Shown here: positions 5,687-52,736 of the stretch, one piece after another
Numbering within the stretch: the first letter of the stretch is position 1
Layout of the letters: each line of letters starts with the position of its first letter
From: Ilex aquifolium
Lineage: Eukaryota > Streptophyta > Magnoliopsida > Aquifoliales > Aquifoliaceae
DNA length: 64,000 nt
Direction: 5' to 3'
Assembly (NCBI GenBank): GCA_951799425.1
Contig: OX637398.1
Coordinates: 4,831,501-4,895,500 of the forward strand
Program-made: the position numbers and the translations under genes
Notes under the pieces: generated by a model
Told to the model about the DNA's origin: nothing
The model's input: only the letters and a program-made list of their open reading frames with translations
The model's database searches: none

Positions 5687-7825
5687 TAGGGGTGTCAAAC
5701 GTGTCGGGTTAAACGGGTACGTGTCGGGTTAAACGGGTGACGGGTGAAAAACATGTAAACCCGTACACGACACGTTTAATAAACGGGTAAAAAATCGAAA
5801 CACGAACACGAACCGTTTAATAAACGGGTAACACGACACGACTCGTTTAACACGTCTAATTTTAAATGGGTCGAGTTGGGTTGGGTCGGGTAGGGCTAAC
5901 ACGATAAACCACTCGTTTAACCCATTTACCTGTTTACCACACGTTTGACCCATTTAACACGATAAACCATCCGTTTAACCATTTATCTGTTTATTTAAAA
6001 ATGTTATATATCTTTATCAAACTAACAAAATAACACAAATAAATGTGATATTTAGAGATATCTCATATGAGTCATACCATACCACACCATATTATAAAAT
6101 ACATAGTACAATCCAAAATATCCAAATTCTACCAACAACCATATTACAAATCATAAATACAATCCGACATAACAATCATATTACAAACCACAATCTCAAA
6201 CAACTACAAATGTCATTATTCACAAAATCCCGTGAAAGATATCAAATCTCCACCTCCACGACAACGAACAGATTCAACAACCAAATTCCCATGCCCTACA
6301 CAAATTAAAATGAAATATTATATAACATCAATCAAAATGTACAAGCTGTAATGAAAACTTCTAAAGGGGGAGGTTCAAAATATAAAAATCCAGATCTAAT
6401 GGTGAGAGAAAAAATGTGCCCCTCCACAGCAGACGGATGGCTTCCTCTACATTATGTATGACCATCTGCTTAAATCTAAGTCTCAGTCAAGTCCACCATT
6501 ACTTCTCCCATCAAATTTTCTGCTCTCAGCTATAACAGACATTGTATCGCATGTAAATGAGCCCCCACGCTTATTATATCTCCTCATATTTTCTCAACCG
6601 TTCTAAACAACCACGTCTGAATAGCAACTAAACTATCATCATTTTATGATACTAGTCACCATATCATACACACATTCCTAAAGAAGAATCACAAATTTTT
6701 CCCAGTATATCCATCTGCTACAAGCCATATTAGAAAAACTTAAAGCAAGATCAAATCCCGGAGTGGAAGTTGAATTTTGTTCCCAGCTTTTTTATTCTAG
6801 CATACATGGTAGGAGATTTAGGAAGACTGAGAACTTGGCACCGGCCAATGAAGATTAAACAACCAATATCAGGGATCGCTGAACTGAACACACTGTCGAA
6901 ACTGAAAAAGCCCAAAAAACTCACTGCTTGAACTGAACTGAACTAAACAGGGGCAAAAAACTCACTGTCGGCACTAAAAAATGGCCAAAAAACACACTCA
7001 GATCTGATCTAACAACAACAAAGCACTACCAGAGGCCAAAAATGCGGCAGTTAAAACAAAACCAGCAGCCAAACAATGGTCAGAAACACAAACAGGAGGA
7101 CAACACCTCCCAGATCCACTTTGGTTGCAATGAATCTAAATGGGTACTCCATTCTAGCCCTAGTCGAGTCTTACCAAAGAGATTCGACCCAAAAACTGCT
7201 GCAAAATTGCGCAAACCAGTCAGATCTGAAGCTGAAACTCTTTGGAGCCGAAAAACATTCAAACATTGGAAAGACCCACTAGATGACTTCAAAAAAATAC
7301 AAGAAAATAATCATAATTATTAGGAAAAAATTTCGAATCTAAGAGTTCAGCCGTGGTCAGCGATCAAGCTTGGAGGTTGTTCGGTGGCCAGCGATCGACC
7401 TTAACGCATTCGGTTCAGTTCAGCGTAGATGGTGGAGAGGAGCAACAAGTAACAACTAAGCTTGGAGATAGAGAGAGAGAAAGAAAGAGAGAAAGAGTGG
7501 ACAGGCTGGAGGCGCACCCAACGTTCAGCGATGGAAATAGATTAGGGTTTGGAAAAAATAACTTTATATATTTTCTGTGTAGTTGTCATTAAAAAAATTT
7601 TTGACCAATTTTTTTAAAATAATTATTAATTTATTATTATATTAATTTTATTTAAACGGGTTATAAACGGGTTGACATGCCTCACCCGAACACGACCCGT
7701 TTATTAAACGGGTTAAACGGGTTAACCCGTTTATCACCCGAACCCGTTAAGATCTCACCCAAACCCGCTTAATCCGTGTCGATTCGTGTCGGTTAATCGT
7801 GTCGTGTTAGATTTTGACAGGCCTA
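5687..7825. mobile_element. hAT-type DNA transposon, non-autonomous, 2.14 kb
   Basis: The left end TAGGGGTGTCAAA matches the inverse of the right end, TAGGCCTGTCAAAA. Both ends are flanked by a perfect 8-bp duplication ACTTTTAT (5679-5686 and 7826-7833), which is diagnostic of hAT insertion. About 250 bp at each end is a dense array of short motifs (cgggttaaacgggt, gacacg) in inverse orientation at the two ends; such subterminal repeats are typical hAT transposase-binding arrays. The interior (6000-7620) shows no transposase motif. Its frames of 60-93 codons are unrecognised and overlap on both strands. It was therefore probably mobilised in trans. The clean target duplication suggests a fairly recent insertion. 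Confidence 0.85.
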
Positions 7826-9213: not shown

Positions 9214-11685
9214 TCTATATAATAAAGTAGCTAGATTTCTTTGTCTTTAGCTTTTCGCGGCTCAGATCATTTTTAAGTTTTTGATCCAACGATTCTAATT
9301 AATCTACATTCCTACAGGACTCTACTACATTCTTTTTATCTCTCCTCATCCCCATTCAAACCATTGGAGAGATATCTACATTCTTACAGGACTCTACTAC
9401 ATTCTTTTTTATCTCTCCTCATTTCCATTCAAACCATGTGAGAGATTGACTTGGACGGTTATATACATACACACACATATATATATATATATATAATAAA
9501 AATAAAATATATCTAAAATCTATTAAAACTCTAATAATAAGGATTATCTCTAAAAAAATATAAGTTCATTAACATATGCCGTCATATTTATATATTTATA
9601 TTGATATCTATATCTATATATATAATTCAATTTATATAATAAACAGTTCAAACGCGTAATTTAAAATTAATAAAATAATAGTACAATAACAAGGATTATC
9701 GCTAACAAAATATAGGTCATATTCGGGTGAGACCTTTCAACCTGTTTAAATAAATTTAATATAATAATAAATTATATATATATAAAATAATGAATGAGTA
9801 AAGAAAAAAAAAATAAAGAAAACATTTCAAAAAAAAAAAAATAAACATATCAATAGTAGGAAAGTGAAGTTTTGAGTCTTGAGGCATTGAATTGCCTTTT
9901 GACCCTTTTCTTTGAATCCCACATCGACAAGGAGTGGAGAGGGGAGACTTCAGTTGCCTATAAAAAGGGTAGTGAACTTCTCATTTTAACTAACATTTGT
10001 GGTGTGATTTTCACGTAAGCTGTTGGCTGGAATTCCTTCAATTGAGGAAAGTACAGTTGGAAGCAAATAAATGGAGTGTAAAAATTTATTAAAATAATAT
10101 TTTTTTTTATTTTTTTGTAAATGGGTTAAACGAGTCATGTTGTGTTACCTGTTTATTAAATGGTTCGTGTTCGTGTTAAAATTTTTTACCAGTTTACTCG
10201 ATTATTGGTTTGAAGTGATTATGATTAGAATTCGAATTTAGCTGAATTTGATTGTCAAGTATAAAAAATATATTTTTGTTTAAACTTAACTTTGCTTGAA
10301 TTTTACGAATATTCAAAGTTGAAGTCAAAATTGAAATTGATTGTAAAAATAATAAAGAATAATTAAATTATATAGTAAGTGAGAATACGCTATGCTATGA
10401 AAAAATCTGTATTTAAATTATATGGGTTAAAATATAAATTTTTAAGTTTATATACAATAAAAAAATTTAGAATTTAAGGTCAATTTCATGTTGGTTTAAT
10501 CAACAACAAATAATATTAAACACGAAATGAACCTTAAATTGTAAGTTAATATATATTTTTATCAGAATTTGACATTTAATTTTGTCCAATTTATATTCAA
10601 CTTTGTCAAATTAATACCAAATTAATTTTTATTGTTATCAAATTAATATTAAAATTCATTTAATCAATTTTTTGGGGGTACTAAATTATATCAATTTTTT
10701 GGGTACTAAATCAAATCTTATTTTATTTTATTAAATTTTTAATTTTTTTGGGTACTCAAGTTGGAGAAAGGCAATTATAAAAATAATAATTTTTTTGGGA
10801 TAAAATCATCACTTTACGTTAGCAATATTGAAGGAAGGGAGACAAAGGGGTCTCTGTGTAATAAATTTTAAATTTTGGGGATTTTCATGTTATTTATAAA
10901 ATATCAGGGGGTGTCTTCATAATATTGTCAAAACTCAGGGGAGTCCGTATTTTTTTCCCTATTTTTTAATTAGATATTAATTTATTATTATTTTATCATA
11001 AAAACTTGAATTATTATATTTTTAATAAAAGCAGTTATTAATTGGGAAGGTTTGTTGGTAGCCAAAAAAAAATGTGTGAGAGTATGTTTCTGTGTATATT
11101 TATATGTGAAAGATTGAAAATTTGGTAATTAAATTTATAATTTTGTTGTGCCATTTGGGGTTGAATGGTGATAGTGGTGATAAATTCATGAGTTTTATAA
11201 ATGAGTAAGATTTGGTTGATTTTATTTATCGCTTAACGATTGTGAATTTAATTGTGTTATATTAGTAATTTTTTTTTTTTTTGCTTGAGATATATATTAC
11301 ATGGAGATAGAGTGGATTGAAAATATGGTGATTAAGTTTATAATTATATTCTATTATTGGATTGAATGGTGGTAAATGTGATAAATTCTTGAGTCTTATA
11401 AATGAGAAAAATTTTATTTATTACTTAAAGATTGTAAATTTCAATGAATTATGTTATATTTGTTTTTTTTTCGGAGGCATTTGTATATATGGTGTTGTTT
11501 TGAAGAGTTTTATATATTTTTACGACAGTTCTATTAATATGGAGGATATAATCGGCGATATATTTCGAGTCATTTTAAAAGAAGAATTGGTATGAATATT
11601 TTTGGCCAATTCTTTTTGAATTTGGACAATTGTGTAAGAATTTTTTGTTTGTTATATAGTGCCTTCAGACACGGGTAATGACTAG
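9214..11685 (+). mobile_element. Helitron, family B, 2.47 kb, non-autonomous
   Basis: The 5' terminus TCTATATAATAAAGTAGC begins after an A (9213). The 3' terminus has a short hairpin (GTGCCTTCAGACAC) followed by CTAG, then a host T (11686). 5' TC, a 3' hairpin plus CTRR, and insertion between A and T without duplication define Helitrons. It shares its subterminal sequence (tttcgcggctcagatcattt) and its last ~400 bp with the copy at 51619-52736. No Rep/helicase frame is visible. Internal features are a ~78-bp tandem duplication at 9283-9440, a hAT-like fragment with ggttaaacga motifs at about 10115-10200, and an AATCCCACATCGAC plus TATAAAAA pair at 9915-9966. Confidence 0.82.
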
Positions 11686-16687: not shown

Positions 16688-18065
16688 CTAGTTATTCTCC
16701 GTGCCTGAAGGTACGGAATAATAAAAAAAAATGTCAATAATAAATATATTTGTATTCATACCCAAAATCAAATCACAAACATAAAAAAGAGATAAATAAA
16801 TTTAAACACCAATTGTAGTGGAGGTGAGCGGTGGTAATAGCGGTAGGCGGCAGTGGTGATGGTGGAAGACGGTGATGGTTGTGGTAGGTGGTGACGACTA
16901 TGGTGATGGTGGCAATCATGAGTGGCAACGGTGATGGTGGTGGTGGATTTTGGGTGAAGATGATGGTAGTGGCAGGCGTGGGTGATGGCGGTGGTGTTGG
17001 TGGTGGTGGTGGACGACGGTGATGGTGGTTGACAGTGGTGATTGTGGGACGATGACGATTGTGGTGGTGGGCGACGATGAGTGCTTTTAGGCGACAGTGT
17101 GATGGGTGGTGGATAATGACAACGGTGGTAAGTGTGGTGGGGATAGGTGATAATGGGTGACTACAGTGGTGGACGATGACTGATGGTAGTGGTTGGTGGG
17201 GGTGGGTAACAGTGACTAGTGGCGATTATGGGCGACAACAGATCATGGTGGGTTGTGGTAGTGGGTGATGGTGGGCAAAAATGGTGATGGTGGGTGCTGA
17301 CGGTGGACGACGATGGTAATAGGATGATGATGGCAATGATAATAAATATAAGAATAAAATAACGATGGTAGCAATCGGTAGAGGGTGACGATAATGGTAG
17401 TTGTGATGATGGTGGGGGTAGTAGGAGTAATGGTGAGAAAGTTGCGGTGATGGTAAGGTGCGACAGCTGTGATGATGATGGTTGGGTGCAGTAGCGGTGG
17501 TGGTGGTGATGGTGATAGAGGTGGGGCGGTGATGGTGGTGGTAGTGATGGTGGTGGTGGTAGTGGTAGTGATGGTGATGAGGTGGTGGTGGTAGTGGTGA
17601 TGATGGTGGTAGGGCGATGGAGGTGGTGGTAGTGGTGGTGGTAGCAGCGTTGGTGATGGTGGGGTGGCAGTAGTGGTGGCGGTGACGGTGGTAGTAGGGC
17701 GATGAGTCTGGTAGGATGGCAACAGTAGTGGTGGCGGTGATGGTGATGGAAGTGGTAGTTGTGGGGGTGGCGGTGGTGTAGTGATGATTGTGGTAGGGGC
17801 AGTAGTAGAGGTGTTGGTGGGGCAGTTTCGAAACACTAATTTTTTTTTTAAAGTACTTATGAGAAATTATAAGTATTAAAAACACTTTTAAAAAGACACC
17901 TCAAACACATCTTCAGAGGTCTATTTTTTCTATTAAATTTAGAGTGTTAATATTAACCGTCGGATTAACTTTAAAGTAAAATTTAAAGAGATCTCAACCC
18001 CGAATAACAAAAGTCATTTTGTTTATCTTTTGAAATTTGAATTGTATTGTATTTTATTATATAGA
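16688..18065 (-). mobile_element. Helitron, family A, with CCN-repeat core, 1.38 kb
   Basis: On the minus strand it begins TCTATATAATAAAATACAAT after an A and ends in a hairpin (CCGTACCTTCAGGCACGG) followed by AGAATAACTAG and a host T. The outer ~220 bp at the 5' end and ~130 bp at the 3' end match the copies at 29981 and 38322-42285. Between them lies ~1 kb of imperfect CCN (mostly CAC/CAT/CCN) trinucleotide repeat, read as GGTGGT on the plus strand. The long frames in the core encode only His/Pro/Thr-type low complexity and are not genes. It starts about 190 bp downstream of the peroxidase stop codon. Confidence 0.85.
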
Positions 18066-22790: not shown

Positions 22791-23891
22791 TTAATCAATT
22801 CGAATAGATTCCTCTGATGCACGCAAGAAAACCTTCTCAAGTTGTACTGGCCAATCTTCCCCAAGTATTCTGGGATTTGACTCCATTGTAACCCGAAAAT
22901 CCAACAATGATGCGGAAAAGGATTTGTTTGGATTTGGTACGTATGCTTTGGGCCTGATCCCATTAAAGCCAGATGTAGCCTGAAAACAAGTTTGGTTTAG
23001 GTGCTTGTGCTCAGACCTTGAACTGGCAAATTCCAAACAGGGCTTCATCAATCTTTTCATAAATATATCCAGCCCACTGTTCAACAGGTTGACACAATCC
23101 AATGAGATTTCCAAACCCTCCATCTCCAACTTTTGTTCCAATCGTTTCTTTAAAGAACTGGTATCAGGCAGCTCGCCATTGTTATGACAAGTGTCAATGT
23201 TAAATGAAGGAGCTGATCCACTACGTAGTACTTTCCGTGTTCCCTTTGTGTGTATGGATATGCCAAGAGGAGCTGTGACTGGGATTCTACCATAAATGCG
23301 GGTACTTCCAGCAGCCTGCTCAACCTCTTCGCCCTCTTCCACAGAGCTAACTTCAGCAAGGGGCCTGCTTCCTAAAGAAAGCAGCTCAGTGGCACTTTGC
23401 TGTGCTTGAACTTTTGGTAACAAATCTTCGCATGCAATACTCTGTGTCTTCCCATAAGGCCCAAGAGGACTTGGATGGTCCCTAAGCTTTCGCTCTCGAA
23501 GATTAGGAGTCCTTCCTTTTCTAGGGGACTGGGGTAAAACATCCCTGCAGACTGATTGAAGACTACTTATTTGATATCCATTTGGCATTTTAACATTCAA
23601 CAAAGCTTCCATTTTGCTCTGCTTTGGAGGGGAAGTCTTGGCAAGGCAGGCATTCTTGATGATTGCTCGGACAAGTCCATTATGAAGGCAGATATTCTCT
23701 CTACCCACTAAACCAATGCAGAGCTTATCAAACTCTGATTTGCAAAGCTTAAGACTTAAATATCTGCCAAGTAGATTGAAGTATTTTTCCGCCTTTTCTC
23801 GACCAAGCTTCTTTTCAATTCGAAGTTTCAGCCCAAGAGTGTCTATTCGGGGAGAATGCCGCCGTACTGGCATTTTGATTCCCGAATTCAT
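22791..23891 (-). CDS. SAGA-Tad1 / ADA1-like transcriptional coactivator subunit
   Basis: A single coding exon of 366 residues from the ATG at 23891 (MNSGIKMPVRRHSPRID); a second ATG at 23873 (MPVRRHSPRID) is equally plausible and gives 360. The first ~90 residues match the plant SAGA-Tad1 domain: LRIEKKLGREKAEKYFNLLG, then SEFDKLCIGLVGRENICLHN, then LVRAIIKNACLAKTSPP. This is a histone-fold-type region that links the SAGA acetyltransferase complex to transcription in the nucleus. The middle is low-complexity and basic (KGRTPNLRERKLRDHPSPLG). The end holds a helical LNSGLDIFMKRLMKPCLEF segment and GEDWPVQLEKVFLRASEE. Arabidopsis relatives (At2g24530 type) also have one coding exon and similar length. 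The frame stays open upstream of 23891 to 24050 but contains no ATG, so that part is 5' UTR or intron. The gene appears intact. Confidence 0.85.
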   Translation of the reverse strand: MNSGIKMPVRRHSPRIDTLGLKLRIEKKLGREKAEKYFNLLGRYLSLKLCKSEFDKLCIGLVGRENICLHNGLVRAIIKNACLAKTSPPKQSKMEALLNVKMPNGYQISSLQSVCRDVLPQSPRKGRTPNLRERKLRDHPSPLGPYGKTQSIACEDLLPKVQAQQSATELLSLGSRPLAEVSSVEEGEEVEQAAGSTRIYGRIPVTAPLGISIHTKGTRKVLRSGSAPSFNIDTCHNNGELPDTSSLKKRLEQKLEMEGLEISLDCVNLLNSGLDIFMKRLMKPCLEFASSRSEHKHLNQTCFQATSGFNGIRPKAYVPNPNKSFSASLLDFRVTMESNPRILGEDWPVQLEKVFLRASEESIRID

Positions 23892-24400
23892 TACGACCAC
23901 CAAAATCAAAATTATCAACGCACCACAAGATAACCTATGAACTTCAAACAATACATACCCCAACTCCTCAATGCCAAAATCCACAAACCCTAGTCCATAG
24001 CTGTTTTTTGTTTCTATCGTCAAGTCAATCTCAGTGAGCAAAGCCAACAACGGTCGCTGAGATAGACTGGATTATTGAATTCTGTAACATAATGAACAAA
24101 ACCCATTCTTCGATTACGCTCAAAACAAATTCTCATCACTTTATTCACAGGTTAATCATTCATTGTGTCAATTAAACACTAAAATTAAAGCAGAACATTC
24201 ATATGTATATGCACAAAATTATCAATTGCGAAGTCCAATTCGGGAAAAGAAATAGTAAAAAACATCACAGAAGCAAAACTATAAATCACATCGGAAGAGA
24301 AAATTCAACTTCTACATGAAACCCTTTAATGAGAAAATACAAAGCCATAGAGCAAATTTAGCAACAAAAACAGACCCTACAAGTAAAACTAAAACTAACC

Positions 24401-29980: not shown

Positions 29981-30670
29981 TCTATATAATAAAGTAGCTT
30001 ACAATTCAAATTTCAAAAGATAAACAAAATGACTGTTGTTTTTCGCGGTTCACATTGCTTCAAATTTTACTTTAAAATTAATTTAATGGCTAATATTAAC
30101 ACCCTAAATTTAATAGGAAAAATAGGGCCCTAAGAGTGTGTTTGGAGTGACTTTTTAAAAGTATTTTTAGAAATTATTTCTCATAAGTACTTTTAAAAAA
30201 AAAAAATAGTGTTCGAAACCGTCCCACCATTGTCGTCGCCACTACCACCGTCGCCGTCGTCACCACCACCACCATTGTCGTCGCCGCCACCACCGTCGCC
30301 GTCGCCGCCACCACCATTGTTGCCACCGCCGCCACCACTACCGTCGTTGCCGCCACCACCACCGCCATCGTCATTGCCATTGCCATTGCCATTGCCGCCA
30401 CCACCACTACCACCACCGTCGCTGCCACAACCACCGTCATCGCTGCCGCCACCACCACCACCATCGCCGCCACTTTCGTCGCCGCCACCACCACCATCGT
30501 CTCTACCACCGTCGCCACCACCACCACCACCTTTCACTCCCACTACAACCGATGCTTAACTTCATTTATCTCTCCTCTATATTTGTGATTTGATTTTGGA
30601 TATGAATACAAATATGTTTATTGTTTACCATTTTTTATTATTATGTGCCTTCAGCACAAACAATAACTAG
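29981..30670 (+). mobile_element. Helitron, family A, with CCN core (690 bp)
   Basis: It starts TCTATATAATAAAGTAGC after A29980 and ends with hairpin GTGCCTTCAGCAC and AACAATAACTAG before T30671. The 5' ~230 bp (tttcgcggttcacattgctt; gtgtttggagtgactttt) and the last ~130 bp match the other family A copies. The 330-bp core is a CCN (CAC/GTC/GCC) repeat. Confidence 0.87.
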
Positions 30671-30862: not shown

Positions 30863-30886
30863 CCATTATATATATACTAGCAATTG

Positions 30887-33800
30887 TCTGTGCCTGAAGG
30901 CACGGTGTTACTCTTAAATTAGTTACAAATATTTGTCCATACATAAATGTAAAGTAAAATACAACATTATAGTAAACGACGAAAAAAATGTGTTCGCTAA
31001 TATTTTTTATAACATCAACATACATGCATAATATATATTTCCACATTAAATTGTTACGCCACAAAAAATTATGTTATAACTACCGAAACATAATAATTCA
31101 AACATCTGAAAAAATATATCAGTTGACAATATTCAATGTTCTGTTTTTGATTCAAAATCCACAATTTTTACATTCATAATCAACTTTATCTAAATAATAA
31201 CAGAATTCATAACTAATAGAATGAAAATTAAAACAATACTCCCACAAATAAACGAAGTCTACAGATATTGTCAAATGACCAAATATAACTATCAGAAATT
31301 CAACCGACTTCCAAAAGATACGACCTGGAAAAAAAAAAGAGATTACAGTTAGGTGTTTATTCATTCTCTAAAAACATACATTTTTTTCTTTTATCCACAT
31401 TCAAATAATAAAAACATAGAGAAATAATGTTTACCAAAAAATATTGCTTCACCGTGAATCATACCACTTGGCCATCTGTATTTTCTTTTCCGTCGACAGA
31501 ACAACTTGCTTTTTCTTTTCCTTTATAGCTAGCATTCACCATCGTGTTTGAATTTTTTTTTTAATCTAAGCAAACAATTTGAATTAGTAATAAACATATA
31601 CATAACATTATGTGTGAATATTACAAACACATGAATGTTGGAGCTTTGTAAAAGGAAAAAAAATAACACAATCCAAAAGGAAAAATAATAACGCAATATG
31701 AATTTTGGTGTAAAGAGACAGACATTATTTAAGAATTGGTCCAACGAATTGTTGGAGCATAACCATTCATGTAGTGCTTTTCTTAAACTATTTTCTTAGT
31801 ATATTTTCTTAAGTTAAACGTTATTTAGTTGCTTCGTATTGTTCACTAAATATTGAATTTTTATGATTCATGTTCATAGTATTGCTTGTAATTTTGTATC
31901 GTTTATCTCGCTTGTAATTTTGTATCATTTTTCTCGGGTATTTAAATTTGGATTATTTAGTAAATATTGTTACATTGTGTTGTTCACTAAATATTGAATT
32001 CGTATAATTCGTGTTTGTATATGAATTTAATATTGTATATTTTAAATGTTAAACATATTTTCTTTAATATATCTCTTGATATATGAGTTGCCAAATAACT
32101 TGAATTTAATATTTTATATTTTACATGTTAAGCATATTTTCTATGTTAAATTAGATTTTTTGCAAGTTATGCTTTTTTTATTTATTATGGAAAAATTAAA
32201 ATTGACTATTGAATTTGTATGATTCGAGTTTATAGTAGTGTTTTTAATTTTATATCATTCTTCTCGGTTATTTATATTTTTAGTATACTTTCTTAAACTA
32301 AACGTTATTTAGATTGTTGTTCACGAAATATTGAATTTGTATTATTCGTGTTTGTATAAACATATTTTCTTTAATATATCTTTTGATATTTGAGTTGCCC
32401 AATAACTTGAATTTAATCTTGTATATTTTAAATGTTAAGCATATTTTCTTTGTTAAATTAGTGTTTTTGCAAGTTATTTTTTTTATTGATTATGGAAAAA
32501 ACAAAATTGAAACTTGAATTTGCATGATTCGAGTTTATAGTAGTGCTTTTAATTTTATATCATTTTTCTCGGTTATTTATATTCTTAGTTTATTTTCTTA
32601 AACTAAACATTATTTAGTATGATTCGTGTTTGTAGTATTAATTGAATGAAAATTACTTAAATAACAAATAATCTTTATAGTACAGGATTCATCGGGCATA
32701 CATGGAAAACAATATAACCAATGTCAAAATCAAAACTGGAGCATAACTAAATGAACAATTAACAAATGCAAAAAAACTTAACCAAATAATGTCAAATTCA
32801 AAACAAAACTCACCTTACACTTGAACAAAATAAAATATTCAGCTAAACTCAATGAATAGTCCCAAGTCTTAATATCAAACCATACCACCAATGCCAAAAA
32901 ATTAAAGGTTATATTAAAATTCAAAACAAAACGCACCTTGCACCTGAACAAAATAAATACAGTAGCAGCACCAAATTACCCCAATGCAGTGAATTTTCAG
33001 CAGCAAGAATTCAATTCGTCGAATTCTCGAACCCAAGTTACAAAAAAATTGTCCACCCAATATTGCTATAAACAAAAGGAATGATATAATATCAGCTTAT
33101 AAACATAATGACTACAGTATACGAAAATTAGATTATCTATATCTCAACCGCAACAAAAAATCACAACAAAACTGCAGCGTGATTTTTTAACAGAACATTT
33201 TTTGTTAACAATATGGGCCAATACATGTCTCCCCAACTAAAAAAAACTTCAGATTTCCAAATAGTTACACTCCTATAATCTAATTTGTTTTCAACCCCTA
33301 TAACATAAATTGCATAGTGCCCACAAAAGTATTATGTAAAACACAAAGAGTAAAAACCAAGAAAATCAACCAACTATAAATTTAGCTTAAAAGAAACAAT
33401 CTAATTTTCATGTTCACTTTTATCAGGTCATAAAAAATAACTTGAATTAATTTACAAATTTTCAAACAACAGTCAAAAAAGTTTTTAAAAGTCTTTTTTT
33501 TTTTCTGTTGCAACAGCAGGAACATTGGTGTCAATTTAAACTCTCTCATAATCATAGGCACATACCATGGTCATTATCAAGTTATTTTAAAACAAAATAG
33601 TAGAACATATATGTCAGACCCAAGAACCATTCAAAAAAGCCAAGAACCATTCAAGATCCAATAGTCCAGAATCATTCAAAATACCATTCAATAGTGCAAA
33701 ATCATTAAAAAAAGCCAAGAACCATTCAATCGTGCATAATCATTCAAAAAAGCCAAGAACCATTCAATGAGTGTGAGACCGAGAGAGAGGGGAAAATGCT

Positions 33801-34582
33801 GGGTTTTAACGAATCAGTCGGATTTTTTTCCTAATCCATATGTGAGCATTGTTTTTCCTCGTATGCCTATCTCGGTGAGTATTCGTTGTAGGGGGCAGAA
33901 ATGGAGAGCTTGAGGGAAGGAAGACAAACCTGGGGGGGAGGAGGCAGCAACGGCTGGAAAGGGAGAGAGAGCCAAGCAAAATCGGCACAGGAGATAGAAA
34001 GCAGCAGTTGAAAGGTTCTTGACTTTGATTTTGGGAAGCCATTAGGGCATAAATTGGGTGGGATTTTACAAAGATCTGCATCAAGTTTGGAAAGCAATTT
34101 TTAGGGGATATATGCAGCGGGTGAAAGGATCTTGAGTATGATTGTGGGAAGCCTTTAGGGAATGAGTTGGGTGGGAAATTATGGAATGAATTTGGGGAAT
34201 AAATTTCGGTGAGAGAGATTGGGTGGGTAGGTTTGGGGGATAGGGAAAGAGAGAATTCTAGTATGGAAACATTCAGGCATGCAATGGTATGGAAAAGAGA
34301 TTCAAGAGATATGGAAAGGAGATGCAAGAAAATCATTCGGATGGAAATTTTTCCGGACAAAGAGATGCTGAGATTGTGGGATTCAAAATTTTTCGGATGA
34401 AAAAATAATAAAGATTCATTTCGATCCGTTGGATTAAAATTTTTTGAAGTGATCTGAGACGTCAATAGCTCGAGACAGTTTGGGATAACGCCGTCTGTTG
34501 GATGATGCCTTTTTTGATCACGAAACGATCTGGGCCGCTCTTTGTCTCCAAAATTCAAATTCGTTCTACTTTATTGTATAGA
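30887..34582 (-). mobile_element. Large Helitron (3.7 kb), minus orientation
   Basis: Its minus-strand 5' end TCTATACAATAAAGTAGAAC follows an A. Its 3' end is hairpin CCGTGCCTTCAGGCAC, then AGACAATTGCTAG, before a host T. It is longer than family A and lacks the CCN core. The 5' part holds a 250-codon frame (33806-34558) rich in Ser/Pro/Leu that I do not recognise as Rep or helicase, plus a ~115-bp tandem duplication (gggaagccattagggcat / gggaagcctttagggaat). The middle (31800-32650) contains ~310-bp imperfect tandem repeats, and 33610-33770 a minisatellite of ccaagaaccattcaa units. It ends 288 bp beyond the SCL32 stop codon. Confidence 0.75.
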
Positions 34583-34870: not shown

Positions 34871-36244
34871 TCAATTAGGTACCCAAGCAGTGGCAAACAC
34901 AACGTTGTGTCCTTTCCATGTAAGCACAAGATCATCTTCTTCCCTCTTCAATCCCCACCCAGCTGCATGCTCATCAAGCATACTCTTCACGTCCGAAACA
35001 GCATCTTCACTGAAAGCAACGCCGCGGAAGTTAACATTCCTCATCCGTTGCACCCACCGGCTTTTCGGCTCGGGCCTCTCCACCCTCTGAAGTCCTTCGT
35101 GTGCTATCACATTCTCAATTTTCCAACAAATATTAGCTTCATACCACTGCCTTTGTCTGCTACCCCGGGGAAGAAATGTGTCAATGGTATCATAAGGTAT
35201 CCATAGATAGTTAAAAGCCGACCTTAATCTGCATACCAAAGTGTTTGATGTAAAATCTGCATCTTCTTCTACTAGTAATACGATTGTTGGGTTTAAACTC
35301 CGAAGTGCCTTGAGAAACATAGATCGAAAGGAGGAGGTAGAAGTCGTCTCGAAAGAAAATGGAGTCGGAATAGTAGTAGATGCGATATCGACAGATAAGG
35401 TTTCTTCAGGGATGTAATGAAGCATCATATGACAGTTTATTACCAGCGCTTCGTCATTGTCTGTATTTACTAGATGTTGCATTTGGAGTTGGTCAACTAA
35501 TGATGAAAACCCATCTGAAAAACTTGAAGGAATCACTCTGAACTCCATGGTCACGTTTCGAGACCTAGCAAAATTAACTAGCTTTGTCCCCAACTCCTCG
35601 TATGAAAGATCAAGCATCGGTGGCACGTCTTCAGTGGCTCCGGCCACCGTGAGCTTGACCACCGGCGGACCCTCGAGGCGGCCGGCAATAGAATCAATCA
35701 GCGTTGGAATCTGCATGCAGTGTGTCAAGCTCAAATCAACTATGTGAATCACTGAATATCCTTCCACAGCTTCCAATATCGCTGCATTAGCTGCAGTGAA
35801 TCCAAAACGATGCCATGGGGTTAAGTCAACGAAGCTTGTGAGCTCGATAATGGAGAAGTTATGAGTGTTTATGGCTAAATTGGTATTCACATGAGCCATG
35901 GCAGTGAGCATTTTGCAACTCTCAGACCTCGCTGCGCGAGATATGAGAGCTCTGAGGAAGCCACAGGTGAGTCTCTGATTGGAATCGCCGTCAGGTGGTG
36001 CGATGTTGTTTAGGACCCATAAGATTTGTTGGGCTAAAGTGGCGTCGTTGCTTTCGATTGCATTGGCACAGTGGACTAACAACTGTTCCATGTAATTAGC
36101 ATTGCCTACGTTTCCTAATGCTTTTGATGTAGGAAAACCAGGCCATGGCCCTGTACGATGAATGTGATTCTTGTTCATGGTGAGAGTTGAAAATGGAGTA
36201 ATTTGGTGCAACGGTGATGGTAGGGTCTCGGTGAATTGCATCAT
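34871..36244 (-). CDS. SCL32: GRAS-family transcription factor, SCARECROW-LIKE 32 type
   Basis: An intronless reading frame of 457 residues on the minus strand, starting at the ATG at 36244 (a second ATG follows directly). GRAS landmarks appear in order: leucine-rich region I (NYMEQLLVHCANAIES, residues 50-65, to ISRAAR at 101-106), the VHIID block as VIHIVDLSLTHCMQIPTLID (165-184), leucine-rich region II (about 195-240), the PFYRE region (CHMMLHYIPEE, 271-281), the ICWKIENVIAHEG motif (372-384), and SAW with RWVQRMRNVNFRGVAFS (396-412), WGLKREEDDLVLTWKG (430-445) and C-terminal ATAWVPN. The short N-terminus, the THCMQIPTLID version of VHIID and the lack of a DELLA motif fit the SHORT-ROOT/SCL32 branch. 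GRAS proteins act in the nucleus. All domains are complete, so it looks functional. The exact clade placement is from memory of the family. Confidence 0.88.
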   Translation of the reverse strand: MMQFTETLPSPLHQITPFSTLTMNKNHIHRTGPWPGFPTSKALGNVGNANYMEQLLVHCANAIESNDATLAQQILWVLNNIAPPDGDSNQRLTCGFLRALISRAARSESCKMLTAMAHVNTNLAINTHNFSIIELTSFVDLTPWHRFGFTAANAAILEAVEGYSVIHIVDLSLTHCMQIPTLIDSIAGRLEGPPVVKLTVAGATEDVPPMLDLSYEELGTKLVNFARSRNVTMEFRVIPSSFSDGFSSLVDQLQMQHLVNTDNDEALVINCHMMLHYIPEETLSVDIASTTIPTPFSFETTSTSSFRSMFLKALRSLNPTIVLLVEEDADFTSNTLVCRLRSAFNYLWIPYDTIDTFLPRGSRQRQWYEANICWKIENVIAHEGLQRVERPEPKSRWVQRMRNVNFRGVAFSEDAVSDVKSMLDEHAAGWGLKREEDDLVLTWKGHNVVFATAWVPN

Positions 36245-38058: not shown

Positions 38059-38321
38059 ATGATTAGAAGGGAAATAAATTTAGTCTTCATGCCCAACATG
38101 AGTAAGCCAATGAAAGAAATTGAATCTGAAGAAAATAAATCCAAGAAACTAGATTATTTTCAAAGATTTGACAGTAAACAAAGAAATGAAATTAGGATAG
38201 GATGGGTCAAATTAATGCATAAAATTGAATCTGAAATTGCATTATTTGATTACATTGAATCCTGTCACAAAGAAGTTAAAGAAGTAACTAAGCATAAATG
38301 GAAGACTTCTAATGCTATACA
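38059..38321 (+). pseudogene. Unrecognised coding-like fragment cut by a Helitron
   Basis: An open frame from 38059 reads LVFMPNMSKPMKEIES, then KLDYFQRFDSKQRNEIR, then IESEIALFDYIESCHKEVKE. It is Lys/Glu-rich with a coiled-coil look and unlike the low-complexity frames around it. It runs directly into the Helitron 5' terminus at 38322, where host coding ends. Together with the shifted-frame pieces just upstream this looks like a decayed gene fragment. The AT-rich, Lys-rich composition would fit plastid-derived DNA, but I cannot identify the protein. Confidence 0.35.
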
Positions 38322-38784
38322 TCTATATAATAAAGTAGCTTATAATTTAAATTTCAAAAGATAAACAAAATGACTTTTGCTATTCGCAGTTGAGATCACT
38401 TTAAATTTTACTTTAAAGTTAATCTAACGACTAATATTAACACCCTAAATTTAATAGGAAAAATAGGGCCCTAAGGGTGTGTTTGGAGTGACTTCTTAAA
38501 AGTACTTTTACAAATTATTTCTCATAAGTACTTTAAAAAAAAAAATAGTGTTTGAAACCGTCACACCACTACCTTTACCACCACCACCGCCACCACGGTC
38601 ATTGTCACCCACCACAACCATCACCGTATCCTACCACCACCACCTCTCACCCTCACTACAACCGATACTTAAATTCATTTATCTCTCCTCTATGTTTGTG
38701 ATTTGATTTTGAATAAGAATACAAATATATTTATTGTTTATCATTATTTATTACTTTGTGCATTCAGACACAGACAATAACTAG
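38322..38784 (+). mobile_element. Helitron array unit 1, family A (463 bp)
   Basis: It starts TCTATATAATAAAGTAGC after A38321 and ends with hairpin-like TGTGCATTCAGACACA and ACAATAACTAG before T38785. The 5' conserved block (tattcgcagttgagatcac; gtgtttggagtgacttctt) and the 3' block are present. The CCN core is only ~110 bp. It is the first and shortest unit of the head-to-tail array. Confidence 0.85.
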
Positions 38785-39789
38785 TATATATATAAAGTAT
38801 AATATAATTCAAATCTCAAAAGATAAACAAAATAAATTTTTCTATTCGCGATTGAGATCTCTTTCAATTTTACTTTAAAGTTAATCCGGCAGCTAATATT
38901 AACACTCCAAATTTAATAGGGAAAATAGGCCTTTAAGGGTGTGTTTGTGGTGACTTTTTAAAAATATTTTTAATACTTATAATTTCTGATAAATACTTTA
39001 AAAATAAAAAGTAATGTTTGGAACCACCCCACCACCACCACTACCACCGTCACTCCCATCGCCCCATCACCATCACTACTACTATCACCACTACCACCAT
39101 CATTCCCATCACCATCACTACTACTACCACCACCACCACCACCCCTACCACCTCACCACCATTACCATTACCACCGCCACCCCACCCCACCCCACCACCA
39201 AACTACCCCCCACCATCATCACCACTACCATTACCACCTCCATCGTCGCCACCCCCAGCATTACCACCAATGTCACCACCCCACCCATCGCCTCGCCGCT
39301 ACCACCACCCCCCCCGCCCCTTACCACCACCCCCCGCCATCATTGTCGTCACCATATCACCCTCCTAACATCACCATTGTCGCCACTCCACCACCATCCC
39401 CATTACACCCACCACCACCATCACCACCACCGCCACTGTCCTACTACAGTCGCCGCCACCCCACCACCACTTCTTCCACAACAACCACCACTGCCCCCTA
39501 CTATCACCACTGTCGTCATTACTACTAGCGTCACCCCACCACCACTACCCCAATCGCTTCACCACCACCCCTCACGACCATCACCACTACCACCACCACC
39601 GTCATCGCCACTCCACCACCGCCATTACCACCCACTATCACTACCATCTCTCACTCTCACTATAACCAATGCTTAAATTCCTTTCTCTCTCCTCTATATT
39701 TATGATTTGATTTTAGATGTGAATACAAATATATTTATTGTTGACAATTTTTTTATTACTCTGTGTCTTCAGGCACAGACAATAACTAG
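38785..39789 (+). mobile_element. Helitron array unit 2, family A (about 1.0 kb)
   Basis: It begins immediately after unit 1 with a slightly altered 5' end (tatatataaagtataatata replacing the TCTATATAATAAAG start) and retains ttcgcgattgagatctctt and gtgtttgtggtgactttt. It ends CTGTGTCTTCAGGCACAGAC, then AATAACTAG. The ~650-bp CAC/CAT/CCN core gives spurious frames of over 200 codons. Confidence 0.8.
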
Positions 39790-40847
39790 TATATATAATA
39801 AAGTATAATACAATTTAAATCTCAAAAAATAAACAAAATGACTTTTGTTATTCGCGGTTGAGATTTTACCACCACCATAACCATTACCACCATCGCCCAC
39901 CACCACCCCACCATCATCACTACCACTACCACCACCGTCCCACCACCACCACCACTGCCGCACTCTACCATCATCACCACCGCTGTCGCACCTTACCACC
40001 ACTGTCGCACCTTACCACCACCACCACTACTGTCCCACCATCACCCCTACCACCCCCACCACCACCCCCATGACCATCACAACTACCACCACCATAGCCA
40101 CTGCCCCACCTCAACCCCCACCCCACCCTCACTGCCCCACTGCCACAACCATGGCCACCCACCACCGATTGCTACCATCGTCCTCCATGGCCACCACCAC
40201 CACCACCACCACCACCATCGTCATCTCATTTTTATATTTATTATCATTACCACAATCATCTCACTACCACCGTCTCCCATTATCAGCACCCACCACCAGC
40301 CCATGTCACTTACCCCACCACACCTATCACCACCACCTGTAATCGCCCACCACTACAGCCACCCACTGTCACCTATCTCCACCACACTTACCACCGTCGT
40401 CATTCGCCACCACTCATCACATTGTCGCCTAGAAGCACCCATCGTCGCCCATCACTACCGTCGTTGTCCCACTATCACCGTCGTCCCACCATCACCACTG
40501 TCAACCACCATCACTGTCGTCTACCACCACCCACACCCACCATAACCACCGTTGCCACCCATAGCTGCCACTACCATCATCGTCACTCAAAACTCACCAT
40601 CACCATCACCATTGTCACCCACGGCTGCTACTACCACCACGGTCGTCATCTTATCCACCACATCCATCATCGTCTCCCATCATCACTACTGTCGCCCACC
40701 ACCACTACTATCGCTCACCCCCACTACAATCGGTGTTTAAATTTTTTTATATCTCCTCTATGTTTGTAATTTAATTTTGGGTGTGAATACAAATATGTTG
40801 ACCATTTTTTTTATTACTCCGTGCCTTCAGGCATGGAGAATAACTAG
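39790..40847 (+). mobile_element. Helitron array unit 3, family A (about 1.06 kb)
   Basis: It begins at the end of unit 2 (tatatataataaagtataat). The conserved 5' block is shortened: it passes from ttcgcggttgagattt straight into the CCN core, losing ~170 bp present in the other copies. It ends CCGTGCCTTCAGGCATGG, then AGAATAACTAG. The core is ~870 bp. Confidence 0.8.
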
Positions 40848-42285
40848 TATATATATAAAGTACAATACAATTCAAATATCAAAAAATAAACAAAATAATT
40901 TTTATTTTTCGCGGTTGAGATCTCTTTAAATTTTACTTTAAAATTACCCAACAACTAATATTAGCACTCCAAATTTAATAGGAAAAATGTCTTAAAGGTG
41001 TATTTGAGTTAAATTTTTGAAAGTGTTTCTAGAACATAAGTACTTTTAAAAAAAAAATAGTGTTCGAAACCGCTCCACCTCACCACTCCAATTACGTCGC
41101 CACCATCACCACTACCGCCACCACCACCACGACTACTGTCACAACAACCACCACTGTCGCCGCCACCACTACACCCATTGCCCCACCACCACCGTTGTCG
41201 CCACCCTATCACCACCACCTCCACCACCACTACCACAACCACCATCACCACTACAACCACCCCCGTCACACCACCATTACCTTTGCAACAACAACAATAA
41301 CAACCACCACCGCCCCGTCACCACCACTGTCGCCACCCCACCACCACCATCCCCACTATCACCACCCTCACCGCCGCCACCCCACCACCACCGCCGTCAC
41401 CCAACCACCACCACTTTCATTGCCCCTCCATCACCCCTAACACCCCCACCCCCACCCTCTCACCACCATTCCCCCAACCATCACCACCATTGCCATCGTT
41501 GTCACCCCGCCACCGCTGTCACCCCACCACCACGACCACTGCCACCACCCCATCATCACCACCACCGCTACTACCCCACCCCCACGACCACTACCTCCAC
41601 CATCGCCCCTTACCGCCATCGTCCACTGTCACCATCCACCACCACCACCACCGCCATCGTCATCTCATTCTTATGTTTATTACCACTACCACCATCATCC
41701 CACTACCACTATTGCCTACCGTCAACACACACCACCACCACCCACCGCCACCTACTACCACAACTCATCATCACCTGTTGTTGCCCACCATCGCCGCCAA
41801 CCACTGTCACCCACCCCCACCACCACTCGTCATCACCCACCACTGTCACCCACCCCAACACGCCTACCACCACTTGTCGTTGCCCACCACCACCATCGTC
41901 ACCGCCGCCACCACCACCACTGTCGTCGCCCTACCACCACCACTGCTAACCACTATTACCGTCGCCGACCACCACCACTATCAACCACAATCATCGTCGC
42001 CCACCACTATCCACACCCACCATCACAACCGTTGTCACCCATGACTACCACTACCATCATCGTCACCTAAAACCCACCACCACCATCATGATCGTCGCCA
42101 CCCACCACAATCATAACCGTTGTTCCACCACCACCACTACCACTATTCACCCCTACTATAACCGGTCCTTAAATTTCTTTCTTTTTTCTCTATGTTTGTA
42201 ATTTGATTTTTAATATAAATACAAATATATTTATTATTGACCATTTTTTTATTACTGCGTGTCTTCAGGCACGAAAAATAACTAA
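40848..42285 (+). mobile_element. Helitron array unit 4, family A (about 1.44 kb)
   Basis: It begins at the end of unit 3 (tatatatataaagtacaata) and carries the full 5' block (tttcgcggttgagatctctt; ggtgtatttgagttaaattt). It ends GCGTGTCTTCAGGCACG, then AAAAATAACTAA, a CTRR terminus with R = A. The core is ~1.1 kb, the longest in the array. A (TG)n tract follows at 42294-42315. Confidence 0.82.
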
Positions 42286-42433
42286 TATATATATGTGTGT
42301 GTGTGTGTGTGTGTCATTTTTAACTTCTTTAATTTTCTACCTAAACTTTTTACCTAACTACGCACACTCTCAAACACCCTGGTCTCGTCTAGTCTAGGGA
42401 ATAGCAAACATTCTCTAAATCCTATTACCTCCA

Positions 42434-51618: not shown

Positions 51619-52736
51619 TCTATATAATAAAGTAGTTAGATTGTTTATTTTGAACTTTTCGCGGCTCAAATCATTTTGATCTGATGGTCCTAATTAGACT
51701 TTTATTCATTTACAACTCTAAGACTTTCATCTCTCATATAACTCTCTATATCTATCTATCTTATAATCTCTCTCTCTCTCATACTATATTATTTATTCCA
51801 TAAAATAGATGAAATTATATATTATACAATTATTTATTCCATGAAACTAATTCAAAGTTTTTATATATCGGCATGTATTTTACCACTTAATTTGTAAATA
51901 ACACTTAATATAAATAAAAAGTAGTACATTGATATTTAACACGAAATGAACCTTAGAAAGGGTAATTGTAAAAATAATAAAATTTGATTTATTTGAATTT
52001 TTAATTTATTTGATTTTATTAAATTTTTAATTTTTTGGTACTAAAATTAGAAAGGGTAATTGTAAAAATAATAAAATTTATTGGGATGAAATTATCAATT
52101 TTTGTTAGCAACATTGACGGAAGAGAGACAGAGAGGGTCTTCGTGCAATGAATTTTAAATCTCAGTGAGTCTCCGTGTTATTTATAAAATGTCAGGAGGT
52201 GTCCGTGTAATATTGTCAAAACTCAGAGGTTGTTTGTGATTTTTACCCTGTTTTTTAATTAAACATTAATTTATTATTATTCTATCCTATAAATTTGAAT
52301 TATTGTATTTTTAATAAAAAAATTATTGGTTAGGAGAGTTTGTTGGTAATCAATTAAATTGCACGGGGATAGGGTGGATTGAAAATATGGTGGTTGAGTT
52401 TATAATTATGTTGTGTTATTGGATTGAGTGATATTAGAGGTAATAAATTTATGAGTCTTATAAATGGGTAAGATTTTATTTATTGCTTAAAATTTATAAA
52501 TTTCAATGGGTTATATTAGTATTTTTTTTCTTCAGATGCATTTGTATATATGATGTTATTTTGGAGAGTTTTATATATTTTTATGATAGTTTTATTAATA
52601 TGGAGGATATGATCAATAATATATTTCGAAAAGAATAATTGATATAAATATTTTTAGGTCATTTCTTTTAAATTTGGATAATTGTTTAAGTTTTTTTATT
52701 TATTGTATAGTGTCTTCAGATACGGACAATAACTAG
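51619..52736 (+). mobile_element. Helitron, family B (1.12 kb)
   Basis: It starts TCTATATAATAAAGTAGTTA after an A and ends with hairpin-like GTGTCTTCAGATAC and GGACAATAACTAG before T52737. Its subterminal block tttcgcggctcaaatcattt and its 3' ~400 bp (tggaggatatgatcaataat) match the 2.47-kb copy at 9214-11685. It has no Rep/helicase frame. Confidence 0.83.

What the first reader, a model, noticed from the sequence alone, without database searches (positions are those of the whole stretch)
38322..42285. Four Helitrons in a perfect head-to-tail array
Seen: four family A units in the same orientation, each new 5' end starting right after the previous CTAG, with boundaries at 38784/38785, 39789/39790 and 40847/40848 and a final CTAA at 42285. 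Each unit keeps its own 3' hairpin (GTGCCTTCAGGCAC type). Inference: this may be a rolling-circle concatemer, in which replication ran past the 3' hairpin into the next round, or repeated insertion at Helitron 3' ends. Only unit 1 has the canonical TCTATATAATAAAG start preceded by A; later units have an altered tatatata start, which favours read-through or junction slippage over independent A/T insertions.
Basis: partly seen in the sequence, partly recalled or inferred. Interest (0 to 1): 0.78.

Follow-up and report, generated by a model that had tools for sequence, protein, structure and literature searches.

The report
Helitron array built by independent insertions
Four jumping-gene copies lie end to end in this plant genome, but they look like separate copies that landed beside one another one at a time, probably each new one at the front end of an older one, rather than a multi-copy strand rolled off one circle.

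Summary
The array is real: units 38322-38784, 38785-39789, 39790-40847 and 40848-42285, head to tail, each new unit starting right after the previous CTAG. It is not special in this 800 Mb genome, which holds 515 exact CTAG|TCTATATAATAAAGTA junctions (control 0), with arrays of up to five units in the loci read. The concatemer reading fails here: unit 1 is of another subfamily (A) than units 2-4 (B), and by alignment score each B unit is closer to copies elsewhere than to its array neighbours. Sampled type-A neighbours match at diagnostic transversion sites at the random rate (47 of 104, 0.452, against 0.442). Best explanation: serial independent insertion. A canonical A|T insertion at the 5' boundary of a resident (host A, resident's first T) gives exactly the CTAG|TC junction, so arrays would grow at the 5' end. 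Support: B is the more diverged subfamily, and mixed zero-gap pairs are A-upstream/B-downstream 11 to 0 (11 to 1 with one odd junction). Same-type decay shows only a weak, non-significant trend that way, and some results go against it. Tandem Helitrons and this ambiguity are in print (maize, 2008); the polarity over a dozen mixed pairs and the self-mimicking target motif are what is added.

The parts
38322..38784 (+). Unit 1: non-autonomous Helitron, subfamily A (GTAGCTTA 5' type), preceded by host A at 38321
   Evidence: best genome matches outside the window 89%
38785..39789 (+). Unit 2: subfamily B (GTATAATA type), ACC-rich interior, altered start TATATATATAAAG
   Evidence: best-scoring held relatives C1:15822818 locus (88.5%) and C1:18846147 locus (90.1%), against 81.8% and 84.7% to units 3 and 4
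39790..40847 (+). Unit 3: subfamily B; its 5' region passes into ACC-rich DNA after GGTTGAGAT, earlier than in the other units; altered start TATATATAATAAAG
   Evidence: best-scoring held relatives C1:10922257 locus (88.1%) and C1:2808117 locus (87.6%), against 81.8% and 83.4% to units 2 and 4
40848..42285 (+). Unit 4: subfamily B, ends CTAA followed by T at 42286
   Evidence: best-scoring held relative C1:38873602 locus (84.5% over 1282 columns); 84.7% over 973 columns to unit 2 and 83.4% over 983 to unit 3, with much lower scores
38757..38772 (+). 3' hairpin of unit 1, weak
   Evidence: -1.7 kcal/mol, z -0.5
39760..39779 (+). 3' hairpin of unit 2
   Evidence: -4.4 kcal/mol, z -2.3
40817..40838 (+). 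3' hairpin of unit 3
   Evidence: -7.9 kcal/mol, z -4.9
42256..42271 (+). 3' hairpin of unit 4, degraded
   Evidence: -3.2 kcal/mol, z -1.8
38321..38322 (+). Left insertion boundary A|T of the whole array
   Evidence: family-wide frequency of A at -1 about 0.91 in 61 flanks
42285..42286 (+). Right insertion boundary CTAA|T of the whole array
   Evidence: T follows 61 of 62 held 3' ends that are not followed by a recognised start
29981..30670 (+). Single subfamily A copy in the same window
16688..18065 (-). Single subfamily B copy in the same window

Best explanation
A non-autonomous canonical Helitron family (two main subfamilies, A and B) inserts at A|T inside a longer AT motif, roughly A-T-A|T-A-n-n-T-A-n-A-T-A. 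A resident copy preceded by host A offers such a site at its own 5' boundary, A|TCTATATAATA. A new copy that lands there is followed at once by the resident's TC, which gives the perfect CTAG|TC junction without any G|T insertion. Repetition makes a head-to-tail array that grows at its 5' end, oldest copy last. Shown: the units of this array are not sisters, and sampled type-A neighbours are no closer than random copies at transversion sites. Inferred with moderate support: growth at the 5' end. Inferred only: that the Rep transposase favours the resident's own 5' cleavage site, as the excess of exact zero-gap junctions suggests. In this window: B copies first (units 4, 3, 2 in that order if the model holds), then an A copy (unit 1).
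For: By alignment score units 2, 3 and 4 each rank copies elsewhere above their array neighbours among 26 complete B units held; unit 1 is of type A. Sampled arrays, type A: neighbours match at transversion sites 47 of 104 (0.452) against 0.442 random at the 5' end, 71 of 120 (0.592) against 0.556 at the 3' end. Lengths of neighbours are no closer than shuffled (22 A pairs 0.168 against 0.186; 7 B pairs 0.347 against 0.283). Mixed zero-gap pairs: A upstream and B downstream 7, B-A 1 (which reads CTA|TC) among 46 typed of 53 zero-gap pairs; listed coordinates add 4 further A-B and 0 B-A. Together 11 to 0 for CTAG|T junctions (p 0.001) or 11 to 1 with the odd one (p 0.006). B is the more diverged type: random same-type identity 0.823 against 0.909 at the 5' end, mean deviation from own consensus 0.075-0.079 against 0.042-0.046. 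Target motif, with the resident 5' boundary at the 96th percentile of A|T sites (the motif was built from the same flanks). 515 exact zero-gap junctions against about 3 to 8 expected if resident 5' ends were ordinary sites of that score (an order-of-magnitude estimate).
Against: Same-type decay is weak: zero-gap A pairs, downstream more decayed 18, upstream 10, p 0.09; trend over 32 zero-gap blocks one-sided p 0.10 by sign, and B alone leans the other way, -3 over 11 comparisons. In the TATA-spaced class the 3' ends lean to an OLDER upstream unit, 9 of 11, p 0.054, so that class may be formed differently. Mixed A-B pairs were more decayed upstream in 5 of 7, each against its own type consensus. 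Neighbours are slightly more alike than shuffled over all types: 5' 0.874 against 0.863 (p 0.015, 48 pairs), 3' 0.833 against 0.822 (p 0.03, 42 pairs); type A at all variable 5' sites 0.58 against 0.537 (p 0.06); type B 5' transversions 14 of 18 against 0.541, though 3' is 9 of 27 against 0.401. Same-type pairs are over-represented (28 A-A and 10 B-B to 8 mixed), which succession in time explains but a minority of concatemers would too. The motif alone predicts more two-base than zero-base spacers, yet the first 100 listed have 59 of zero and 2 of two bases. In maize three lines carry only the left (upstream) of two adjacent Helitrons, which favours 3' insertion or needs excision (PMC2267711, passages). 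Units 2 and 4 share a start form found at 8 places in the genome, a hint of exchange inside this array.
Confidence: 0.7

Rival explanations
1. Rolling-circle concatemer: a circular or read-through intermediate was copied past the 3' hairpin several times and inserted as a multimer.
For: Precise CTAG|TC joints are what Helraiser circles contain (PMC5876387, passages); 515 exact joints in the genome; same-type neighbours are over-represented; type B 5' transversion sites match in 14 of 18.
Against: Units differ in subfamily, in length (463, 1005, 1058, 1438) and in best-scoring relatives; sampled type-A neighbours share transversion alleles at the random rate; neighbouring complete B units rank 5th to 22nd of 25 by identity, never first; mixed arrays cannot come from one circle.
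Confidence: 0.06
2. Serial insertion at the 3' end of residents (at CTAG|T), as the first reader's second idea and one of the two readings in the maize paper.
For: Gives the same junction; in maize, lines with only the left unit fit it (PMC2267711, passages). The one B-A pair found has CTA|TC, and the TATA-spaced class leans to an older upstream 3' end.
Against: Needs a G|T target, whereas the family has A at -1 in about 0.91 of 61 and T at +1 in about 0.97 of 48 flanks; predicts old-upstream pairs, but mixed zero-gap pairs are 11 to 0 or 11 to 1 the other way.
Confidence: 0.17
3. End joining in trans: Rep joins the 3' end of one element to the 5' end of another during transposition, and the mixed multimer inserts at once.
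For: Would give exact joints between unrelated copies; not excluded by the lack of similarity between neighbours.
Against: Predicts no order of subfamilies; no direct evidence.
Confidence: 0.05
4. Unequal exchange, gene conversion or local duplication built or reshaped this array.
For: Units 2 and 4 share a start form seen at 8 places in the genome.
Against: Full-length identity of neighbours is ordinary: unit 2 to 3 81.8% (rank 22 of 25 from unit 2), unit 3 to 4 83.4% (rank 8 of 25 from unit 3, 21 of 25 from unit 4).
Confidence: 0.05

Closest known systems
Adjacent head-to-tail Helitrons of maize (Du et al. 2008, PMC2267711; passages seen)
   Same: CTAG of one element joined to TC of the next, a G/T joint, different contents, read as consecutive insertions; the A|T-at-the-5'-end reading was already proposed there.
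   Different: One pair there, order left open, and lines with the left unit alone; here hundreds of junctions and a subfamily order, from a dozen mixed pairs, that favours 5' insertion.
Tandem Helitrons of Myotis lucifugus (Pritham and Feschotte; known here only through PMC2267711 passages)
   Same: Perfect head-to-tail joints.
   Different: Read there as tandem repeats from rolling-circle replication; here the sampled units look independent.
Helraiser circles (PMC5876387; passages seen)
   Same: Precise RTS-to-LTS joint.
   Different: Experimental circles of one element; no evidence on circles here.
Self-inserted and tandem Helitrons of Fusarium and other fungi (PMC5148889; passages seen)
   Same: A copy inserted 2 bp upstream of the 5' part of another; a triple tandem in Metarhizium explained either way.
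   Different: Helitron2-like ends; single cases.
Xuan-Feng Helitrons of wheat (PMC13286980; passages seen)
   Same: Canonical TC...CTRR ends and marked AT insertion preference.
   Different: Inverse PCR found no genomic tandem Xuan1 copies in the varieties tested there.

Membership tests
Canonical Helitron (Helitron1), non-autonomous | 5' TC | tested here: met
   Unit 1, and 6396 genome places with the start motif at up to 2 mismatches; units 2-4 have TA
Canonical Helitron (Helitron1), non-autonomous | 3' CTRR | tested here: met
   CTAG, CTAG, CTAG, CTAA
Canonical Helitron (Helitron1), non-autonomous | Hairpin 10-15 bases before the 3' end | tested here: met
   Clear in units 2 and 3, degraded in 1 and 4
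Canonical Helitron (Helitron1), non-autonomous | Insertion between A and T without target duplication | tested here: met
   A38321|T38322 and CTAA|T42286; T follows 61 of 62 free 3' ends, A precedes about 0.91 of 61. Empty sites not tested
Canonical Helitron (Helitron1), non-autonomous | Autonomous Rep/helicase partner in the genome | tested here: inconclusive
   150 Helitron_like_N (PF14214) matches scored in the genome, 0 of 14 control genomes; none tied to these ends
Rolling-circle concatemer | Units are each other's nearest relatives and of one length | tested here: not met
   for this array; for the sample
Rolling-circle concatemer | Precise CTAG|TC joint | tested here: inconclusive
   515 exact places in the genome; the three joints in the window read CTAG|TA

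The most novel reading that the evidence does not exclude
The transposase uses the 5' end of resident copies as a preferred landing site well beyond what the target motif explains, roughly a hundredfold over equally scoring sites, so that a Helitron family directs itself to its own 5' ends and a tandem array is a dated record with the youngest copy first.
Probability: 0.4. Interest if true: 0.6.

Novelty: new member of a known kind. Interest (0 to 1): 0.4.

Why it matters
Tandem Helitrons have been cited as a trace of rolling-circle replication (PMC5876387, passages). If many are serial self-targeted insertions, they are weak evidence for concatemers and instead record insertion order. The data bear on the order-of-insertion question left open in maize in 2008 and give a testable rule: the downstream unit should occur alone in some accessions, the upstream unit should not.

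Tried and rejected
Identity of neighbours over all types has little power here because random copies are almost as alike; sites of intermediate frequency, then transversions only, were used instead. Age by distance to the five nearest copies gave no polarity for zero-gap pairs (p 0.31 and 0.94) and a lean to an older upstream 3' end in the TATA class (p 0.054). Decay by array position was weak. The target motif was tried as the whole explanation of spacers: four bases upstream of a resident, in the 25% of flanks with A|T there, it scores higher than the zero-gap site (median 11.8 against 5.8), in line with the TATA class, but it also predicts two-base spacers (7.8, in 61% of flanks), which are rare. 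The tail letters GAAA were tried as a marker of B upstream units; of 6 such loci fetched, 4 showed the upstream start and all 4 were A at the 5' end with a B-like 3' end, so the marker was dropped. A full-length blastn all-against-all timed out and was replaced by pairwise global alignment of the 26 complete B units held; A units were not compared that way.

Rows left out: the upstream unit at C1:6181977 (ACATA, typed B and A) is not in the 11. Of 53 zero-gap pairs, 7 have no clear upstream type: 6 whose upstream start was not found in the held DNA (4 with an A and 2 with a B downstream; the four had A-like 3' ends) and 1 with an odd start. In one search the A list is the first 100 of 242 places and the start list the first 100 of 6396, the B lists are whole; an unlisted unit between two listed starts cannot be excluded, and tails other than CAATAACTAG and GAAATAACTAG are not seen.

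Sampling limits: loci were taken from the first listed matches, mostly contigs C1 to C5, and by near-perfect patterns, which favours young downstream starts.

Full report
What is there. The window lies at C8:4831501-4895500 of an 800 Mb genome in 103 contigs, plant-like by its genes (a GRAS protein and a SAGA-Tad1 protein; that GRAS proteins are typical of plants is recalled). They are elements with conserved ends and an ACC-rich interior, 55-58% GC in units 2-4, and no Rep/helicase frame was sought or seen in them.

The family. The start motif occurs at 6396 places with up to 2 mismatches. Two types can be told apart just after the start: A (GTA-GCTTA and the like; 75 of the first 100 listed perfect starts, typed by hand) and B (GTA-[C/T]AATA; 25 of 100). 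Unit 1 is A, units 2-4 are B. B is more diverged: random same-type identity 0.823 against 0.909 at the 5' end.

Arrays are common. Exact CTAG|TCTATATAATAAAGTA occurs 515 times with no match to the reversed control. With any spacer of 0-24 bases there are 864; of the first 100 listed, 59 have none, 22 have TATA, 2 have two bases, 2 have TATATA and 15 others (hand count). The exact TATA class numbers 152. Among the loci read, one array has five starts in a row, with mixed spacers (C2:9188964 locus). The window's joints are altered forms: TA in place of TC occurs in 14 of the 106 zero-gap junctions listed in full, and the form of units 2 and 4 at 8 places, two of them here.

Concatemer or insertions. 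In the window array units 2, 3 and 4 have different best-scoring relatives elsewhere and are 81.8-84.7% like each other, ordinary for type B; unit 4 is about equally like many B copies. Unit 1 is of the other type. In the sample, type-A neighbours agree at diagnostic transversion sites at the random rate (5' 47 of 104 against 0.442; 3' 71 of 120 against 0.556) and do not resemble each other in length. Type B gives little: 14 of 18 against 0.541 at two 5' sites, 9 of 27 against 0.401 at four 3' sites, and full-length ranks of neighbours from 5th to 22nd of 25. A single circle does not give this picture. A small excess of similarity over all types (5' 0.874 against 0.863; 3' 0.833 against 0.822) leaves room for a minority of duplications.

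Which end grows. A perfect CTAG|TC joint arises from a canonical A|T insertion if the new copy lands between host A and the first T of a resident; the maize paper already named this possibility (PMC2267711, passages). It predicts that the upstream unit is the younger. Mixed zero-gap pairs are A upstream of B in 7 and B upstream of A in 1 of 46 typed pairs, the window's own pair included; coordinates in the match lists add 4 and 0. The single exception reads CTA|TC. Since B is the more diverged type, this favours 5' growth (p 0.001 for 11 to 0, 0.006 for 11 to 1). Decay in same-type A pairs points the same way but is not significant (18 to 10, p 0.09; all zero-gap blocks, one-sided p 0.10); B pairs alone do not show it, mixed pairs do not show it against their own consensus, and the TATA-spaced class leans the other way at its 3' ends (9 of 11, p 0.054).

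Why there. Flanks of 61 free 5' ends and 48 free 3' ends give a target motif with A at -3 and -1, T at +1 and +5, and ATA at +8 to +10. The element's own start after A resembles it (96th percentile of A|T sites). The excess of exact joints, 515 against 3-8 expected for sites of that score (an order-of-magnitude estimate), and their excess over two-base spacers, which the motif would favour, suggest that the transposase also recognises the resident's own cleavage site. This last step is inference.

Verdict. Literature searches were in an open-licence library, so wider priority was not checked; six papers were seen, as passages only.

Noticed in passing
window 39020-39660, 39870-40740, 41070-42150: Interiors of the B units are strand-asymmetric ACC/CCA-rich low-complexity DNA (GC skew to -0.68 per 2 kb); unit lengths vary between copies; origin unknown.
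   Followed up: partly
L096, L097, L099, L100; C1:3141361-3142188: A third form of the family: A-type 5' end with a B-like 3' end (GTTGAC...GAAATAACTAG), perhaps a recombinant subfamily.
   Followed up: partly
L004, L062, L058 (C1:6817708, C1:2564568, C1:2308961): Junctions that read CTA|TC with the G of CTAG missing, one of them the only B-A pair; may mark a different cleavage or route.
   Followed up: no
L078, L080 (C1:57111898, C1:62083666 region): Junctions CTAG|TATATAATAAAG lacking TC altogether, downstream of a TATA-spaced unit in the same array.
   Followed up: no
window 9214-11685 (+), 51619-52736 (+), 30877-34582 (-): Starts TCTATATAATAAAGTA (one with a mismatch) and CTAG ends with the same kind of hairpin suggest further Helitrons of other families; starts and ends were not paired formally.
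   Followed up: no
window 34871-36244 (-), 22791-24050 (-): Host genes: GRAS domain protein and SAGA-Tad1 protein (Pfam).
   Followed up: partly
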